64,000 nucleotides of DNA from Byssothecium circinans (lineage: Eukaryota; Ascomycota; Dothideomycetes; Pleosporales; Massarinaceae). Location: contig ML976985.1 in assembly GCA_010015675.1 (NCBI GenBank), forward strand, positions 1,038,619-1,102,618, written 5' to 3'. The notes under the pieces were generated by a model. It was given only the letters and a program-made list of their open reading frames with translations. It was not told the origin of the DNA and did no database searches. The position numbers were made by a program, and so were the translations under genes. Below, one piece after another: positions 10,794 through 50,026 of the stretch; position 1 is the first letter of the stretch, and each line of letters starts with the position of its first letter.

Positions 10794-11603
10794 ATGGCCC
10801 ACCCCAACCGCCTCGCCAACACGCGCATCCTCATCTTCGGCGGCACATCCGGCATCGGCTTCGGCGTCGCCTCCCTCGCCCTCTCCAACGGCGCCACCGT
10901 CATAATCTCCGGCTCCAGGCAACCCAAAGTCGATTCCAAAGTTCAAGAACTAGCGTCCTTGTACCCGGACCTGCCCGCCTCTCGGGTCCTAGGCTACGCC
11001 TGCGACCTCTCCGACATCGCCGGCATAGACGCGAACATCAAAGACATCCTCGACAAAGCGACGGAGAACGGGACCAAGACGCTAGATCATATTGTGCATA
11101 CTGCGGGTGATGCGTTGAAGCTTCCCACACTGCAGGACGTCACCGTCGAGAACGCACTGGCGGGCTTCCATGTACGCTTCCTCACTGGCGTCATGGTGGG
11201 GAAACATCTCGCCACCGACCCGGGGTACTACATGCCCGTGTCCCCCACCTCCTCGCTGACCCTCACCTCGGGCACCAACAGCGAGAAACCGCGTCCAGGG
11301 TGGTCCCTCGGCGCGTCCTGGGGGTCAGCAGTCGAAGGGCTGTCTCGCGGCCTGGCCGTCGATTTGAAACCTATTCGTGTGAACGTTGTGGCGCCGGGGG
11401 CGATTGAGACGCCGCTGTTGGAAAAGTTTGTGCAGGCTGTGGGGGAGGAGAAGGCGGAGGAGATGAGGAGGGAGGGGAGCTTGGTGGGGAGGTGGGGGAG
11501 TGTGGGGGATTGTGCGGAGGCGTATGCGTGGGGGATGAGGGATTGGTTTGTTACGGGCGTGCGGATTGAGTCGAATGGGGGGAGGATGTTGATGGGGCCG
11601 TAG
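10794..11603 (+). CDS. Short-chain dehydrogenase/reductase-like protein lacking YxxxK
   Basis: Intronless, 269 residues, one Rossmann domain. The cofactor motif GGTSGIG is at 16-22, an NAG-like HTAG at 102-105, and VNVVAPGAIETPL near 197-208 marks the end of the fold. Where classical SDRs have YxxxK, this protein reads LGASW (172-176), so both catalytic Tyr and Lys are absent. An RPGW motif precedes it. Similar PGW/DW-type SDRs exist in fungi, so this looks like a family trait and not a single mutation. It may bind NAD(P) but act by a different mechanism or as a non-catalytic protein. Confidence 0.85.
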   Translation: MAHPNRLANTRILIFGGTSGIGFGVASLALSNGATVIISGSRQPKVDSKVQELASLYPDLPASRVLGYACDLSDIAGIDANIKDILDKATENGTKTLDHIVHTAGDALKLPTLQDVTVENALAGFHVRFLTGVMVGKHLATDPGYYMPVSPTSSLTLTSGTNSEKPRPGWSLGASWGSAVEGLSRGLAVDLKPIRVNVVAPGAIETPLLEKFVQAVGEEKAEEMRREGSLVGRWGSVGDCAEAYAWGMRDWFVTGVRIESNGGRMLMGP

Positions 11604-11791: not shown

Positions 11792-13639
11792 TTAAGACAT
11801 CGTCCCCCCAAGTCTCGCCACCTCTTCAGCAACGAAGCCCCATTTCGAGCAATCAGCCAATAACCCCTTGAATCCAGCCTCCCTCAACTTCAAAATCTCC
11901 TCGTCGCTTCTTTCTTGATCCCTCTTCATCGCGATCTTGAACTTCAGCCCCAGCACGGTGAATACATCGCTCATGCGCTCGAAAACCAGCTCAAAGACTT
12001 CGATATCTCCCCTGCAGCTCTCATCACCTGTAGTCCGCCAATGAATTACCAGAACGCAACCCGCGATGTAGATGGAGGAAGCAATATGCGCGCTGAGTAG
12101 AAGATCGATGGAGATCCGCGCTGTGTCTTTCACTATTTGTGCTGTGTTTTCGGCCGCGACGACGGCCCGGGCAAAGTAGTCTTTTGCAGTACTTGGGTCT
12201 GCGATACCGGCGCTGCGGTAGTGGAGGAGTATCGCAGTGGTGTTCAGTATGAGATTGAGCCAAACGGCATGGTCGCGGTCTTCGGTTGAGGCTTCTAGTA
12301 CTGAAGTTGCAGATCTCGGGATACTGAGACGAAGCTTCACGAGCGAAGCGTCGAGATCGTCACATTCTTGTGCGTATTCTAGCGTGTCCGGGGAGTTGTG
12401 GAGAGAGTGGATAAGCTCAGTGACGCGGCCTAGGAGGACGTGTACGATGACCAGGTAGTGGAATGGGTTGAGCGGTGACTTTGCAGCTGATGTTGAGGAA
12501 ATTAGCGTGTTTAATTTGGGCGTGAATGGCGTATTGATGAGTGTGCTAGGATCGGTCTCTTCGGTCATGGCTTGGAATACCGCTTCTGTGGTCGGGATGT
12601 CGATTTTGAAATGTCGTTCATCAACCGCGGTCGGCCATCCGGTTGGCCAGCTACCATTTCGATCCATCATAAACAACACCCACAGCGTACGTCTGCATTC
12701 CTCCTTCTCAATTGCCGTCTTCGGCGTCCATTCAAACTGTGTGTAATATCCTTGTCTCTCCTCCATTCCATCTTTACGGTTCAGTGCCATGACGACTGAG
12801 TTGCTGGAGTCTGCTCGGTTCATCCCAAGTGATGCGGCTTGTCTCCACGCTTTCCCCACATACAGCCAACACGCTGAGAAGTCACCTCTTGTGTATGCGT
12901 GGAAGACGAGACAGAGCGCTGCTTGAATTGTTCGTAGCGGGGGTTGAGGCACGCGTCCTGTGAATTCGTAGAGAAACTTAGCTTGGTCGTACCACGCGTT
13001 CTGGCGGGTTTTGACGGCGGGATCGGGATGGAAGGACGATGCGATCGTGCAGATCGCATATAGAAGAAGCTCTGATTCTGCGTGAATAGTCCCGTTCTGG
13101 AATTGGGAAAAGAACGTGTTTTTTTGGAAGAATGGAAAGCGGTGTTGGAAGTGCTCGAAGAAAATGTTGATTAGCTCATTGAGCGTTTCGCCGACTGGAA
13201 GCATGGCTTCTCCCATGATATCTTCAGTATTCGGGACTCGTAAGGGCAGAAATGGATCGACTGTGGGATAGCTATTCAAGAGTGGCACTTCCCAGGATCC
13301 TGATAAATCGACGTTGTTGTCGGTGAAGTACTCCATGTTGAAAGCATTCTGGCTCGCGATTTCTGGAGGAAGGAACGGTTGTCGACCAAAAAGTGTGGAT
13401 GTATATTGTAGAGATTCATCGTCATTTACTCTATGAGAAGATGCAATGTATTCGCACTTCAATCCCCATTTCCGGCATAGGCTAATTACATGTCGGCCGT
13501 TCTCCCTAGATCTGATCAGTGAGGCGTGGGAGCACGATTTTGGGATTTGTCATACATCGCAGCGTTTCTTTCGGCTACGGCAGCTGTTGCAGGCGCGCTT
13601 TCTTTTTGGTATCGAGGCCGAGACGGTCAAAGACTGCAT
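11792..13639 (-). pseudogene. Zn2Cys6 fungal transcription factor, frameshifted in the zinc cluster
   Basis: Exon 1 (13639-13556) encodes a basic stretch and the first half of a Zn2Cys6 cluster (ACNSCRSRKKRCD). After a 50-bp GT-AG intron, exon 2 starts at 13505 and reads GERPTC. Four extra bases (AATT at 13487-13484) then break the frame. Beyond them the other half, SLCRKWGLKCEY, is intact and runs into an open frame of over 550 codons with a fungal_trans-type middle homology region (HFQHRFPFFQKNTFF, CRRTLWVLFMMDRNGS). Removing the 4 bp would give a regular C6 cluster, so this is a recent break. A shortened product from a later ATG could still be made without DNA binding. A sequencing error is possible but less likely for four bases. 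Confidence 0.8.
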
Positions 13640-13983: not shown

Positions 13984-16900
13984 CTACGCAGTCGCTTCCT
14001 GTCGCTGTGTCCGCAAATCCCCGCCAGCCTTCACACTGTGCGAGATCTGCGGCTTCAAGCTCCCCAACACCTCCGCAGCAACTTTTATAGCATCTTCCGG
14101 CAATCCCGCAACCCTCGCCACCTTCAACGCATGGCTCTGTCGATTAACTCCCTTCCTCAAGCGATGCACGTACGAAAACTTGCCATCTCCTTCCTCCATC
14201 ACATCATTACAATAACAACCCAGCTTCTCAAACCCTGCAGTCATATCCGTCAGTGCGTGGAAGTGCGTGGCAAACAATGTCCTGCACTGATTGACATGAT
14301 ATAGATGATGGAGGCAGGCGTAGCCGACCGCAACGCCATCCTCAGGCGTTGTTCCGCGTCCTACTTCATCCATGATGACAAAAGAGCGAGGCGTAGCTTC
14401 TTTGAGGATATGTGCTGTCTCTAGCATTTCGACCATGAAGGTGGATTGGTCTTGGTAGAGATTGTCTGCGGACCCGACGCGACTGAAGACTTTGTCCACG
14501 AGGCCGATCTCGGCGTATGAGGCTGGGACAAAGGATCCGGTTTGTGCGAGGATGGAGATCAGTGCGTTCTGGCGGAGGTAAGTACTCTTGCCTGCCATGT
14601 TCGGGCCGGTGATTAGCCAGATGCGTTCATCATCGCCGAGGAGACAGTCGTTTGGCGCGAACTTGCGAGCCTGGTCGTTGAGTCCTGCTTCTACAACTGG
14701 ATGTCGTCCGCCGACAATGTTGTGTGAGGTTCCAGCGTTGAGGATAGGTCGGACGAACTTCTTCTCGACCGCGAGGACTGCGAAAGCGCAGGCTACATCT
14801 AGTTCGTCTAGAATGGCAGCATTGCGTCGAAGTTTGACTAGATTGCGCACAACATCTTCCCGTAACTCGCCGAGCACTCGCTGCTCTTCATTGCGGATAC
14901 GAAACCGGGTTTCGTCGAGTTGTGCTCCCAGTTGTGTCCATTCGGGTACCTGAAAAGATTTCGTCGACTTGCTACTGCTTAGGCTTTTTGGGTAGTGAGC
15001 AGTGACACGGGATACGTCTTTGCCTTTGACGTGAGCAATATGGGCGAGATTGGGCGTCCATTTGAGCACCAAGCTCTCCGTTCTCATATTCTGACGTAGA
15101 TCTTGCTCAAGAGTTGATTTCTCCTCAGACATGGCGTCAAGCTTGTCGTGCAGTCGCTTCAGGGTCTCGCTTGCGCTTCTCTTCATTATCCAAACATCGT
15201 CTCGACCATCGGTAGCGCTCTTGAAGCTTCCCGTGATGAGTCGAGGTTTCGGCTGTATGCGCTTGGGCATTTGCTGGAGATCTTCCTCGCCGGCCTCTCT
15301 GCCTAGGACGTCTTGCGCGAGTTCTTCCATTTCCGCAGCTTCATCGTCTTCAAGGCGATGATATTCCGATAACCCTTCTTCATCGATGGCATCTTGGATT
15401 CGTTTGGCTAGTTCTAATGGGTGGTCTAGCAAAAAGCGCCGCTGTAATGCTGGCACGCACTGCCTTCTTCTCTTTTCAGTCATCTCGTTCTCAGTGTTGA
15501 TGGGAATTCCGTGCCTAGAATGGGAGTGTTCTTTCAGCAGCTTGAGTATGTCTGCCGTAGTAAGAATCGTTCGCGATAGCTCCATTAGATCGTCAGCATC
15601 CCCCCGGCCGACAGTAAACTTTGTGACGAGACGAAGTGAGTCGAACGTCATTCCTAACAATGTGATCACGTCTTGTCGGAGCTGTGGGTAGTCAATCATC
15701 TCCTCTACGAGATCTAGTCGATCGTTGATCGTTGACAAGGACATCGAAGGTGCAGCTTTCAATGTCAGTCATTGCGCAGTAATCTCATATTGCTAGACTT
15801 ACAGAGACGGTGCGTCAGAAGCCTGGTGCCGCTCTTCGTTACCGTCTTTTTCAACGAATGCAGCAGGCTTCCCTCGTAAGTGCCGTCGCGTATCGTGCTT
15901 CGGATCTCTAGCGCTCGCAGACTGTTCTTATCAATACTCATATGATCTTCGGCTTGGTGCCGGACAGGCGCCTGCAGTTGAGTCCTTGAGCCAAGCAACT
16001 GGTGTTTGACATAGTGTAACAGCGAGCCACCAGCTGCCACCTCACCTGGCGTGAAGTCCGCTGTGTCGAAATCCTCCACAACATCTTCTAGCATTGGGAT
16101 CCAGTCCGCAACAGTCAAAGGCTGTGGCGACGGCTCTTGAAACGTTACGATATGTCCGTCTTCTTGCAAGATGGAAACAATCCGCGAATGTTCTTTCTCT
16201 TCGAAGATGCTATCAAGTACAATCTCCCGAGGCTTGATGCGCGCCACCGCTGAGGGTAGTGAGGCAATGTCCGTGCTCTGGGTTAGGAAGTCCCCGCTGG
16301 ATAGGTCAATCCAAGCAAGTCCGACCTCAGTTCGGGGAAGATTGAGGACTGATGAAACGCTGGAGCTGCCCGGGCTGATCTTGACCGCATTCTCCTTTTT
16401 GAGCGCTTCCGGGTCGACGTGAATACTGAGCAGGTAGTTGTTCTCCCAAGGGTCCATGAAGTGCTCATCGATTAGCGTTCCGGGCGTGATGATACGTGAT
16501 ACCTTTCGTGTATATTGAGCATCCCCTTTGGCTCTCTTCGGAGCATCGTTCAAAAACTCATCGTTGATCGCAACATGCTTGTTCAGATCTTGAACCAAGA
16601 TCTTCAGGTAGCGATCGAGTTGGTAGACCGGAAAGCCAGCCTTGCGAGTCAGCTAAGTAGATTTAATCCCATGGAATACTGACCATGGAAACTGCCGGTC
16701 TCTTACTGCCTTTCATCGCTTTTCTCTTCGACTTTTTGATGTTCAACAAGGGCGCAAACTCATCAGCATGCTCAAAGTACAGCTACAATTATTAGTCTAG
16801 TCATTTCCCAGCTAGTTCACTTACCTCATAGAACCCTCCAACCCGCGTCAACAACACACAATGGCTGAATTTGATCATGCTATTGCGCACTTGCTGTAGG

Positions 16901-45733: not shown

Positions 45734-46318
45734 GGTGTTATGCTATTGCTGTGGTGTGGGGGACTCGTGTGCTTATGTAGCAGTGCGGTGCAGTGCAGCG
45801 CAGCGGGGCTCGCGCAGTCCAAGGTTGTTGGTTGTTGGTGGTGGGAGCAAGGCAGCAGCTAAGGCGGGCAGGCGGAGGCGGAGACGGAGGTGGCTGGCAA
45901 AGGAAGCTGCGGCTGGCTATGCTAGAGGGATTGAGGCTTTTTGGCGCTGCCAGGAATCAGGAACGAGTGGAGTGGAGGTTTGGTTGTTGCGGAGCCTGCA
46001 TGTGTGCTTGTGCGCTTGTGCGCTTGTGCTTGTGCTTGTGCTTGTGCTTGTGCTTGTGCTTGTGCTTGTGCTTGTGCTTGGCCTGGTGGAAAACAAAAAG
46101 GCGGGTTCGTGTTTACAGCGGGGGTCGACCCACGCAAACGGCGCCGGCTTTCTCCGGTCTATCAGATGCTGATGCTCAATGCTCACACCCAGGCCACCTC
46201 ACTCCCACTCCATCCTGTCTGGCTTCAAACAACATCATCCAACTTTGATGCCCCGTCTCTCCTCCGCGATAGTGCATTTGTCCGAGTCACGAGTTGCTCG
46301 GCCCTCCAGCTCGCCATC
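45734..46318. promoter_or_regulatory. Shared promoter of CKS1 and the first F-box gene
   Basis: 585 bp between two divergent start codons, containing a hexanucleotide microsatellite. A frame through this region is open in phase with the F-box gene but reads through the repeat, so it is not taken as coding. Confidence 0.6.
46023..46080 (+). repeat. (CTTGTG)n hexanucleotide microsatellite
   Basis: More than nine uninterrupted CTTGTG units, with interrupted copies just before. It lies in the CKS1/F-box intergenic region. Confidence 0.95.
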
Positions 46319-47893
46319 ATGGAGTCGTTTCCCGACGAAATATTGCTCGTCATCTTCGACATGGTGGCTCCACCCATCACATCATTGACTTCCCCCCATC
46401 TCCATCAGGATGCATACTATTTTGCACTCCTCTGTCGCGTTAGCCATCGCTTTCGGCGCATTGGGACGCCTCTCCTGTACCGATCCATTGAGCGACCACC
46501 CAACGCAGAAGAGCCCATGTGTAAATTCCTGAGAACTGTCCAACAGGTACCTACACTGAAGGACCATATCAAATACATTCGCCTCTCTGAGCCCCCCAAC
46601 TTCCATCACTATCTTGAGTCTGCCCCTCTCCAGGAAATCCTGCATTCTCTGCCCCTTCGGACGATACGCTCGCTAGCCACTCAGCTACATCTACCTGATC
46701 CAGACGAGATTTGTAGCCGCTATATACGTGTTGGCGACGATATCCTCCTAGCGCTAGCCACCTTCATGGCCCCGAAACTCGAAAAGCTTGTAGTAGACTT
46801 CCCCAGTTATGCACATTACGAATATTCCCGTTCCGAGTACGCACCTCCTCTGATTGAAGCCATCTGCCGCATGGCTCTAGGGGAGACGCTCGGCCATGTT
46901 CATAATTTCAAATCACTCCGTGTACTGCATATCAATAACACGGGCGGAGCTGGTTTACCCATAACGTGGACGCTGCCACTACTTCTCCTACCGCAGCTAC
47001 GAGATCTATCATTGTACAGTTGGGACGAAGGGATAACTCACCAAGTGTACGGCCATGTGTGGACCTGGCCACGGAGAACATCGCCTATCCGCCGGCTGTC
47101 TTTGATACGTCCTAGTGTACGACCGCTCTTCATTTCAGATTTTATAGAGGCCTGTGAAGCACTGACATCCTTCGAGTGTACTGAACCTCAAGGACGCTTT
47201 CTTGAGTGGTTCTCATATATCTCCGATGCGCTCAAGGCGCACTCCGAAAGCTTGGAAACCCTTTCCGTTACGACGTCTTGGATCGCTCATGGCCGCAATT
47301 TTCACCTGACTGGCAACGACAGTTGGGGTAGGCTTCCTTGCATCGCGAACCTAGCTAACCTCAAGAATCTGAGGGTTCCATTCTACTTCTTCTTCAGCAA
47401 CGAGCCCATCGGCGCGTCTATACCGTCAGCTCTAGAATCTCTCACCTTTGACTTCCGTACCAATGGACGACCACAAGACGCCAATCCTCTCTTCGCCGGT
47501 ATCTTGGATGCTTGTTCCCACAAACCACTTTCAAGCCTCAAGAACATCCGTGTCTTCATACTCTTACGCCACTATAAATTTCCTCTGCCGATTGACTGCA
47601 CCAAATTCATAACAGTGTTTAAAGCCCAAGGAATACGCCTAGATGTGATGGTGTCCTGCCTAAGCGGACGCGGTGAGTTTGCATGACCCGACACTATGAT
47701 CTCCTTCACTTACCATGGCCCAGTTCCTCCTGGGAAAGACACGATGCAAAAATTCGAAGAGATATTCCCGGAACATTGTGCTATAATACACAATCCCTCG
47801 ACTTGGGCCCCTGCGCTAAAGGCTTCAACGTGGGCCGATCACAGGTCGAAAGAGGAGATTCAGAGGGACATGGCGAACGGCTACTTGATGTGA
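46319..47893 (+). CDS. F-box protein, tandem copy 1
   Basis: Starts at ATG 46319 with an N-terminal F-box (FPDEILLVIFDMVAPPI to RVSHRFRRIGTPLLYRSI). It is followed by leucine-rich beta/alpha units (LPLLLLPQLRDLSLY, LSLIRPSVRPLFISDF). I splice 46319-47672 to 47724-47893 (GTGAGT donor, CAG acceptor, 51 bp). This removes a stop at 47684 and adds 56 residues, giving 507. The alternative without splicing is 455 residues ending GRGEFA. The intron is supported by a same-phase intron at the matching place in the downstream paralogue. It should bind Skp1 in an SCF ligase; the target is unknown. Confidence 0.8.
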
Positions 47894-48502
47894 TGAATGA
47901 TGAACGCCGCACTGTGGACTCGTATGCGAAGGCCTACAAGCCTCAGATCATCCGCCGTTCGCAACGTCTACTGACCTTTCATGCCTCTCGCTTGCATCTG
48001 GAGGTAGGGCCTTGGTACAAAATCACATCTTAGGATGTCGACGTATTCTTAAGACGTTTGCAGAGGCAACAGCTTTAGTGAGGCGTCCAGATGACTCGGG
48101 AATAGAGTTCCAATTGAGCCAGCAATCAAGCTAACTTGGTCTTGGCGAACGGCGTTTGCGGTCAGCACCATTTTTTCGATTGCAATCTTTTTCCCTGACT
48201 GCCATTTGTCAATTGACATCTTTGCTACCTCCTCCCAGGGCCTTTCTTATCGCTTCTCTTGGTGCCCAGTCAACTGCTTTAACTGCGGCGTACTACCAAA
48301 ACCAGAACGACAGGCTTACCTAACCTTGTCAAACGCACCTACCTGGGAACCTCGGTGCTTTACTTGGATCTTACCTTTACAAATGTTCCCCCACCACCGC
48401 GTTACTTTCCTCCCAGTCTTCACAGCTCCATAATCGCCCGCCGCCTAGCCAACTACAAACATCGACGACCTCAGACACTGTACACCATCACCCGCCGACG
48501 CC
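47894..48502. other. Spacer between tandem F-box genes
   Basis: About 0.6 kb holding the 3' flank of copy 1 and the promoter of copy 2; no further gene seen. Confidence 0.55.
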
Positions 48503-50026
48503 ATGGATCAATTATCCGATGAGCTACTGCTCTACGTGTTCAACGAGGTTGCGCCGCCCATCGACACATTCGTCCCGTCCGCTCAGGTTGGCCTTGCTGC
48601 GGTCTGTCTGGTGTCTCGCCAATTCTATCGAGTCGCAAATCCTCTTCTCTATCAAAGCATCATATTACCTCCCGAGTCCAAGCACCACCGCGTCACATTT
48701 CTTCTTCGGACCTTGAAAGAGACGCCTGTGCTTAAGAAATTTGTTCAGCGCATCCACCACAAGATAGGATGTTCGATGCCCGAGGATGGTCCGTCCCAGC
48801 AGATTGAGCACCATCAAAACTACAGTCAACTCCTGACCGCGTTCCTTGCATTCCAATGCCCTTCTCTGTCACACCTCTGGATTCGCATGCCCACTCAATA
48901 TTTGTCTTTACATTGCGCAATACCACTCCTTCTAAAGGGTATTTGCCGCAGCGCTCTTGGGTCCCCGCTCGGTCTTACCCATTCCTTCGCCAATCTTCGT
49001 ACGCTACACGTGGATCTACAGATGACCAAACCATGGCCTGCGAAATACACTTTCCCGCTTTTTCTTCTGCCAACAATCCAGGAACTTACCTTGACTGGCT
49101 TGTATCCTGATCGAAGTCATCCGCAATCTGAAGATACTGGCAAGCTTGTCTATGGACATGAGTGGACATGGCCCGTTCGGTCTTGCACCATTGAGAAACT
49201 GTCTCTCTTGGACCTGGTCGTTCCATCGGAGGTTGTGTCCAATATGATCTCATGCTGCAAGTCCCTGCAGAAATTCAATTGTGAGGCACCCTGGAGTGGG
49301 CAGTATGAGGACCCTGGATGGTTCAATCAAATTTCCGAGGCTCTCTTGTGTCACGCAGATTCCCTAGAAGATGTGTCACTGGGCCTTAGTGTCATAAACA
49401 GGAGAGAGCACTGTACCTGGCATAGGTTTCTAGACCTCCAACGTCTAACCCTCGTCAAGCGTCTCCGGATCAACTATAACCTCGCTACTAATGTGACCAC
49501 AACCTTCAACGCTGGAGGTATCCTTCCGCCAAACGTCGAGTTCATCCATTTTGAAATCTGGCAGACAGTTCCGGAGAAGATTGGCGATTTTTTGCAGGGT
49601 TTGCTCTCTGCATGTGCAACAAAATCCTTCCTCGCGCTGAAGAAAATTCGCCTCCGATTTCGAAGCTGCGACCTCACTAGCCCGTTGCCCTTCAATTACG
49701 AAGAGCTCAAAGCTCTGTTCAATAATCAGGGCATTACCCTAGACCTCGTACTCATTTCTAGATTTGCAGCATACGACTGTAAGTGCCATACCTCGACAAT
49801 TGAATTCCTACCTTGCTTGGTTTCTTGTCTAACACGTTCAGTGTATCGGTACGATTCATTTCAGGAAGCCGAGCAAAAAGTGCGTGAACTTGGTCATGTT
49901 GGTTTGAAGCCTGATGTGATTCAGTACGACGAATACGTGTTACCTGTGTTGAAGACGTTCAACGATGTGAGAAGCGAGGACGAGAAGGTGGAGGAGGACG
50001 GACTCAGTATTTGGGACGGTCCCTGA
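48503..50026 (+). CDS. F-box protein, tandem copy 2
   Basis: N-terminal F-box (LSDELLLYVFNEVAPPI to SRQFYRVANPLLYQSI), then leucine-rich segments. It is clearly related to copy 1 over its length (for example VYGHVWTWP in copy 1 and VYGHEWTWP here). A GTAAGT to CAG intron at 49779-49841 (63 bp, with a CTAAC branch site) is a multiple of three and has no stop. Spliced product is 486 residues; unspliced is 507. Splicing joins AAYD to LYRYDSFQEAEQKV. Substrate adaptor role in SCF is inferred. Confidence 0.83.
   Translation: MDQLSDELLLYVFNEVAPPIDTFVPSAQVGLAAVCLVSRQFYRVANPLLYQSIILPPESKHHRVTFLLRTLKETPVLKKFVQRIHHKIGCSMPEDGPSQQIEHHQNYSQLLTAFLAFQCPSLSHLWIRMPTQYLSLHCAIPLLLKGICRSALGSPLGLTHSFANLRTLHVDLQMTKPWPAKYTFPLFLLPTIQELTLTGLYPDRSHPQSEDTGKLVYGHEWTWPVRSCTIEKLSLLDLVVPSEVVSNMISCCKSLQKFNCEAPWSGQYEDPGWFNQISEALLCHADSLEDVSLGLSVINRREHCTWHRFLDLQRLTLVKRLRINYNLATNVTTTFNAGGILPPNVEFIHFEIWQTVPEKIGDFLQGLLSACATKSFLALKKIRLRFRSCDLTSPLPFNYEELKALFNNQGITLDLVLISRFAAYDCKCHTSTIEFLPCLVSCLTRSVYRYDSFQEAEQKVRELGHVGLKPDVIQYDEYVLPVLKTFNDVRSEDEKVEEDGLSIWDGP

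What the first reader, a model, noticed from the sequence alone, without database searches (positions are those of the whole stretch)
13481..13490. TAATTA scar with 4-bp insertion inside a Zn2Cys6 zinc cluster
On the coding (minus) strand the cluster reads TGT, then AATT, then AGC CTA TGC. Without AATT it is a regular C-S-L-C pair and the C6 motif is complete. With it the frame is lost. The site is TA-AT-TA, i.e. a duplicated TA flanking two bases. That is what precise-but-scarred excision of a Tc1/pogo (Fot1/Pot2-like) element with ends beginning in A would leave. The rest of the gene stays open for over 550 codons, so the event looks recent.
Basis: partly seen in the sequence, partly recalled or inferred. 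Interest (0 to 1): 0.75.

Follow-up and report, generated by a model that had tools for sequence, protein, structure and literature searches.

The report
Transposon-like scar breaks fungal regulator gene
A fungal gene-regulator gene carries four extra letters, TAATTA where its relatives have no such insert, the kind of scar expected when a jumping gene of a type common in this genome cuts itself out, and this breaks the gene's DNA-binding part.

Summary
On the minus strand a Zn(II)2Cys6/Fungal_trans regulator gene (exon 1 13639-13556, intron 13555-13506, exon 2 from 13505) reads TGT-AATT-AGC inside the zinc cluster (13490-13481). The 24 of 107 homologues that show this segment lack the insert. 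With the conserved splice the frame stops after 35 codons, in the scar. Contig length equals that of a Byssothecium circinans record. One terminal A plus one T between two TAs gives TAATTA. Random 4-nt insertions give TAATTA in 0.04% of simulations. The gene evolved no faster than its intact sister, so the break is recent or tolerated. Not shown: an empty or filled site in another isolate, or the same scar elsewhere (negative, weak tests). New here: a second acceptor 4 nt downstream cancels the frame shift and would give a 597-aa protein lacking the fourth cysteine. The kind of event is known; this is a new instance.

The parts
13483..13488 (-). TAATTA scar: two TA copies flanking AT, four nt more than relatives, inside the zinc-cluster codons
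13482..13484 (-). in-frame stop codon TAG reached from exon 1 with the conserved splice (35-aa product)
13556..13639 (-). exon 1: 28 codons, first three zinc-cluster cysteines
   Evidence: resembles exon 1 of P0002 and P0003
13506..13555 (-). intron 1 (GT...TAG, 50 nt), position as in relatives
13502..13503 (-). AG of a second possible acceptor, 4 nt downstream of the conserved one; its use would give a 597-aa open frame with RCDNGRHVISLC at the cluster
   Evidence: use in the cell not shown
11792..13505 (-). exon 2; open from the scar to the stop (563 codons), Fungal_trans domain PF04082

Best explanation
A pogo/Fot-like DNA transposon with inverted repeats beginning in A once sat at a TA dinucleotide in the second half of the zinc cluster of this regulator gene. 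It left by cut-and-paste, and end joining kept one terminal nucleotide of each end (A and T) between the two copies of the TA target site, giving TAATTA. The four extra nucleotides shift the frame and put a stop codon in the scar, so the normally spliced message encodes 35 residues and no complete zinc cluster. Shown: the extra nucleotides, their absence in relatives that show the site, the stop, the TA duplication, and A-starting, recently copied, transposase-encoding pogo-like elements in the same genome. Inferred: the past insertion, the excision, and which family did it.
For: Sequence form TA-A-T-TA. 24 of 24 relatives that show the segment lack it. Fot-like families: 150 scored DDE_1 matches of 515 candidates; 20 of 25 elements with called ends start with A after TA, 16 of them TA|AGCT; a three-copy subfamily at 99.4-99.7% identity and a pair at 99.83%; the two A-type transposases scanned have HTH_psq, HTH_Tnp_Tc5 and DDE_1, the domain order that PMC3441728 gives for a cluster holding Fot1, Flipper and Nht1 (passage). 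Random expectation 0.044% for TAATTA. Four-nt gaps are rare in the repeats compared, 2 of 149. Passages: Tc1/mariner footprints of 2-4 bp (PMC7913693), 0-4 bp for the pogo-superfamily element Passer (PMC9976928), a TA-flanked footprint after end joining (PMC2874221).
Against: No second scar of this form was found: neither of the two 4-nt gaps in the repeat comparison is TA-NN-TA and a scar pattern inside A-type element ends had 0 hits. None of the 150 scored DDE_1 matches lies in the window; the nearest on C9 is about 297 kb away. The scar of Fot1 itself was not found in passages of ten papers opened; a two-nucleotide overhang from one end would predict TAAGTA or TACTTA instead, and Minos is printed as leaving 6 bp (PMC10992017). 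In A. nidulans a Fot1-like element jumped while its donor copy stayed (PMC4832277).
Confidence: 0.7

Rival explanations
1. An ordinary 4-nt insertion from error-prone end joining or replication, with no transposon, that happens to read TAATTA.
For: No footprint of the same form was found elsewhere; any frameshift in a dispensable gene can fix.
Against: Chance of this form is 0.044% (TAATTA) or 0.86% (any TA-NN-TA) among random 4-nt insertions; the insert is not a tandem copy of its neighbours; the outer nucleotides match the ends of 20 of 25 elements.
Confidence: 0.17
2. An assembly or sequencing error.
For: Only one assembly is available; P0001 comes from a contig of the same length, so it is not independent. 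How it was sequenced was not found.
Against: A four-nt mixed insertion outside a homopolymer that mimics a TA-flanked scar is not a usual error (general knowledge); the SDR-like ORF (10797-11603) and the MutS-like ORF (13984-15768) beside it are open over 268 and 594 aa.
Confidence: 0.08
3. The scar is real but the gene is not dead: a second acceptor 4 nt downstream (GGAG^AAC) cancels the shift and gives a 597-aa regulator with five of six cysteines, or a start codon made by the exon junction (GCGATGG) gives a 571-aa protein without the first half of the cluster. This concerns the outcome and can hold together with any of the origins.
For: Both frames are open in the sequence as it stands; the public model P0001 begins with the same residues as the junction-start reading; the first 95 residues of the shifted-splice form still score on Pfam Zn_clus (29.4 bits, cut-off 21; first 97 of the sister species 45.5); no rate increase.
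Against: The downstream acceptor is preceded by G and competes with a TAG acceptor 4 nt upstream (weak by general knowledge of splice sites). The lost cysteine is the fourth, which in GAL4 bridges both zinc ions (recalled). No RNA data.
Confidence: 0.15

Closest known systems
Excision footprints of Tc1/mariner/pogo transposons
   Same: TA copies flanking a few nucleotides that match the element's terminal bases; 0-4 bp are printed for the pogo-superfamily element Passer (PMC9976928, passages).
   Different: Here the element is inferred; no filled or empty site is available. The exact scar of fungal Fot1 was not found in the papers opened.
pacX18 of Aspergillus nidulans: endogenous Fot1-like insertion in a zinc binuclear cluster gene (PMC4832277, passages)
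   Same: A Fot-like element hitting a zinc-cluster regulator gene.
   Different: That is a present insertion, obtained in a selection, with the donor copy retained; here only a scar remains and it lies within the cluster.
Orthologue in Massarina eburnea (P0002)
   Same: Similar exon 1, same Fungal_trans domain, 68% identity over the ORF.
   Different: Contiguous six-cysteine cluster, PF00172 at 42 bits.

Membership tests
Zn(II)2Cys6 transcription factor (PF00172 + PF04082) | Six cysteines CX2CX6C...CX2CX6C in one reading frame | tested here: not met
   Conserved splice stops after 35 aa; the 39 open single-intron forms of the scan hold at most five cysteines. Intact relatives have six.
Zn(II)2Cys6 transcription factor (PF00172 + PF04082) | Fungal_trans middle homology region | tested here: met
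   PF04082 85.1 bits, residues 127-337 of the ORF
Tc1/pogo excision footprint | TA target duplication flanking the extra nucleotides | tested here: met
   TA-AT-TA; relatives' proteins leave no room for the extra four nt
Tc1/pogo excision footprint | Retained nucleotides match terminal bases of an element family in the genome | tested here: met
   20 of 25 elements with called ends begin with A
Tc1/pogo excision footprint | Filled or empty site in another isolate or copy | not testable with these tools
   one assembly only; single-copy site
Tc1/pogo excision footprint | Same scar type recurs in repeats of this genome | tested here: inconclusive
   0 of 2 four-nt gaps in 34 of the 55 loci then held, 219,110 bases; 0 pattern hits; low power
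pogo/Fot-like elements (source candidates) | Transposase with DDE_1 and Tc5-type HTH, terminal inverted repeats, TA duplication | tested here: met
   (three transposases scanned)

The most novel reading that the evidence does not exclude
The scar and a tandem splice acceptor exactly cancel each other: the transposon left four nucleotides, and splicing at the acceptor four nucleotides further on leaves out four others, so a fraction of messages encodes a full-length regulator with a remodelled zinc cluster (five cysteines, a nearby histidine) that is kept by selection. A footprint would then have changed a regulator's DNA-binding module instead of destroying it.
Probability: 0.1. Interest if true: 0.6.

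Novelty: new member of a known kind. Interest (0 to 1): 0.35.

Why it matters
It is a readable case of a gene whose DNA-binding domain was broken, probably by the departure of a transposon and not by its presence, in a genome that still carries near-identical copies of suitable elements. Such scars are only a few bases long and escape repeat annotation; here the public gene model begins without the first half of the cluster. The acceptor four nucleotides on makes a specific, cheap RNA test of whether splicing can absorb a footprint.

Tried and rejected
Intron reading of the extra nucleotides: rejected, relatives have the intron upstream and the cysteine pair close together. Other single-intron forms: 39 open forms in the scan (GT or GC donors, introns of 30 nt or more, segment 13760-13300), at most five cysteines. 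A pogo end at window 48821 (12-mer match): rejected, it lies inside an ORF and the full end was not found within 8 mismatches in the window. Miniature derivatives: the short end matches belong to longer copies, some truncated; one search scored 40 of 190 candidates, so small ones may be missed. The element around L015 as a test bed for empty sites: 5 matches, namely itself, two partial ones on the same contig and two short ones elsewhere, not followed further. Scar pattern within A-type ends: 0 hits. Literature on the exact Fot1 scar: searches, passages of ten papers opened, none gives it; other listed papers were not opened. Sequencing method of the assembly: not found (listing only).

Full report
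What is there. The window lies at G000:C9:1038619-1102618 of a 48.4-Mb, 109-contig genome. Contig C9 is 1,417,624 bases, the same as the contig of P0001, named by its source as Byssothecium circinans CC80DRAFT_440853, partial; the species is in Massarinaceae, Pleosporales. On the minus strand an ORF of 585 aa (13549-11792) carries the Fungal_trans domain and no zinc-cluster hit. Upstream, exon 1 (13639-13556) encodes MQSLTVSASIPKRKRACNSCRSRKKRCD, close to the start of Massarina eburnea P0002 and Lentithecium P0003. Between them lies a 50-nt intron ending in CTAG. The conserved splice reads on through the fourth cysteine codon TGT, then AAT, then the stop TAG: 35 aa.

Relatives. Of 107 homologues, 24 show the second half of the cluster, and all 24 have the fourth cysteine followed by two residues and the fifth cysteine (serine in Bimuria P0011), with no insert. 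Of the other 83, P0001 is this gene's own record, P0037 (Alternaria) reads otherwise just before RWNLKCEY and P0046 (Setomelanomma) lacks the second half; these two are gene models and could not be resolved. Five relatives scanned have PF00172 above cut-off, and P0002 aligns with GAL4 over the cluster among solved structures. So the four extra nucleotides are seen only in this genome's copy. P0001 starts MENGRHVISLCRKWG, which equals a reading that starts at an ATG created by the same exon junction.

Is the form of the insert telling? The site is TA-AT-TA. A simulation of 2 million random 4-nt insertions in the window gave TA-NN-TA in 0.86% and TAATTA in 0.044%. None of four placements tested is a tandem copy of the adjacent four bases.

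Candidate elements. A DDE_1 search scored 150 matches of 515 candidates in the genome; counts are lower bounds. Ends were set for 25 of 30 fetched loci: 20 start with A directly after TA (16 TA|AGCT, then TA|AGCG, TA|ACGT, TA|AGTC) and 5 with C (TA|CAGTCAACT) (L022 and L008 at one end only). Left out: L006, L007, L024, L025 and L029, where no clear pair of ends was found. L010, L014 and L016 are 99.4-99.7% identical, and a search with their end found six ends, those of these three copies; L010 and L014 have no stop within the DDE_1 match, L016 has one. L013 and L018 are 99.83% identical with 528-aa frames. Transposases of L018 and L014 have HTH_psq, HTH_Tnp_Tc5 and DDE_1, the organization that PMC3441728 reports for the cluster with Fot1, Flipper and Nht1 (passage). 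One terminal base from each A-type end between the TA copies gives TAATTA. Passages give 2-4 bp for Tc1/mariner (PMC7913693), 0-4 bp for the pogo-superfamily element Passer (PMC9976928), 6 bp for Minos (PMC10992017) and a TA-flanked footprint after end joining (PMC2874221). That Fot1 itself leaves a 4-bp scar of this kind is recalled, not checked.

Looking for the same scar elsewhere. Self-comparison of 34 loci (219,110 bases) gave 149 short gaps, not all independent, 2 of them of 4 nt, neither TA-NN-TA. By eye, element L017 sits at the TA of another A-type end, but a pattern for a scar at that TA had 0 hits in the genome. These tests have little power and count mildly against.

Age. On a tree of 13 of the 107 homologues (named species with complete models, plus the window's own ORF for Byssothecium), using the part after the scar, the Byssothecium branch (0.252) is as long as that of Massarina (0.250); 61 of 64 positions invariant in the other 12 are kept, within the range of the other species (61 of 62 to 61 of 73). 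Byssothecium is somewhat less similar than Massarina to the two Periconia sequences and more similar to Lentithecium and several others. The break is recent, or the rest of the protein is still constrained.

Consequences. A scan of single introns gave 39 open forms from the exon-1 start into the downstream frame, none with more than five cysteines. The one with five uses the conserved donor and an acceptor 4 nt downstream (GGAG^AAC), cancelling the shift: 597 aa, cluster of the same length, RCDNGRHVISLC, the fourth cysteine replaced; Pfam scores its first 95 residues 29.4 bits against 45.5 for the sister's first 97. By recall the fourth cysteine bridges both zinc ions in GAL4, so DNA binding is unlikely to be normal, and an acceptor preceded by G is usually weak. 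I therefore take loss of the regulator as most likely, and splice tolerance as the bold alternative.

Verdict. The transposon-scar reading is the best explanation (0.7), with plain insertion (0.17) and assembly error (0.08) as rivals on origin. The kind of event is known; this is a new instance.

Noticed in passing
L017, element 900-2670 and flanks: By eye the L017 element sits at a TA inside the end of another A-type element; the six bases on its right (gcctat) equal those on the right of the scar's TA. One of 18 target sites printed, possibly chance.
   Followed up: partly
L002-L005: A separate pogo-like family with ends TA|CAGTCAACTCC, four copies 99.7-99.9% identical, 521-aa open frames; the one scanned (L002) also has an HTH_ABP1_N (fission yeast centromere protein) domain.
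   Followed up: partly
P0011 (Bimuria novae-zelandiae homologue): The fifth zinc-cluster cysteine reads serine (CALSRKWN), a second lineage with an altered cluster in the same regulator.
   Followed up: no
L015 316-3053: The A-type element L015 lies between 68-bp inverted repeats starting TAACGCTG, suggesting a further A-starting element of about 0.95 kb without the insert.
   Followed up: partly
window 45935-47686 and 48449-50026: Two neighbouring same-strand ORFs with similar stretches (MESFPDEILLVIFDMVAPPI and MDQLSDELLLYVFNEVAPPI) that look like a diverged tandem pair; domains not tested.
   Followed up: no
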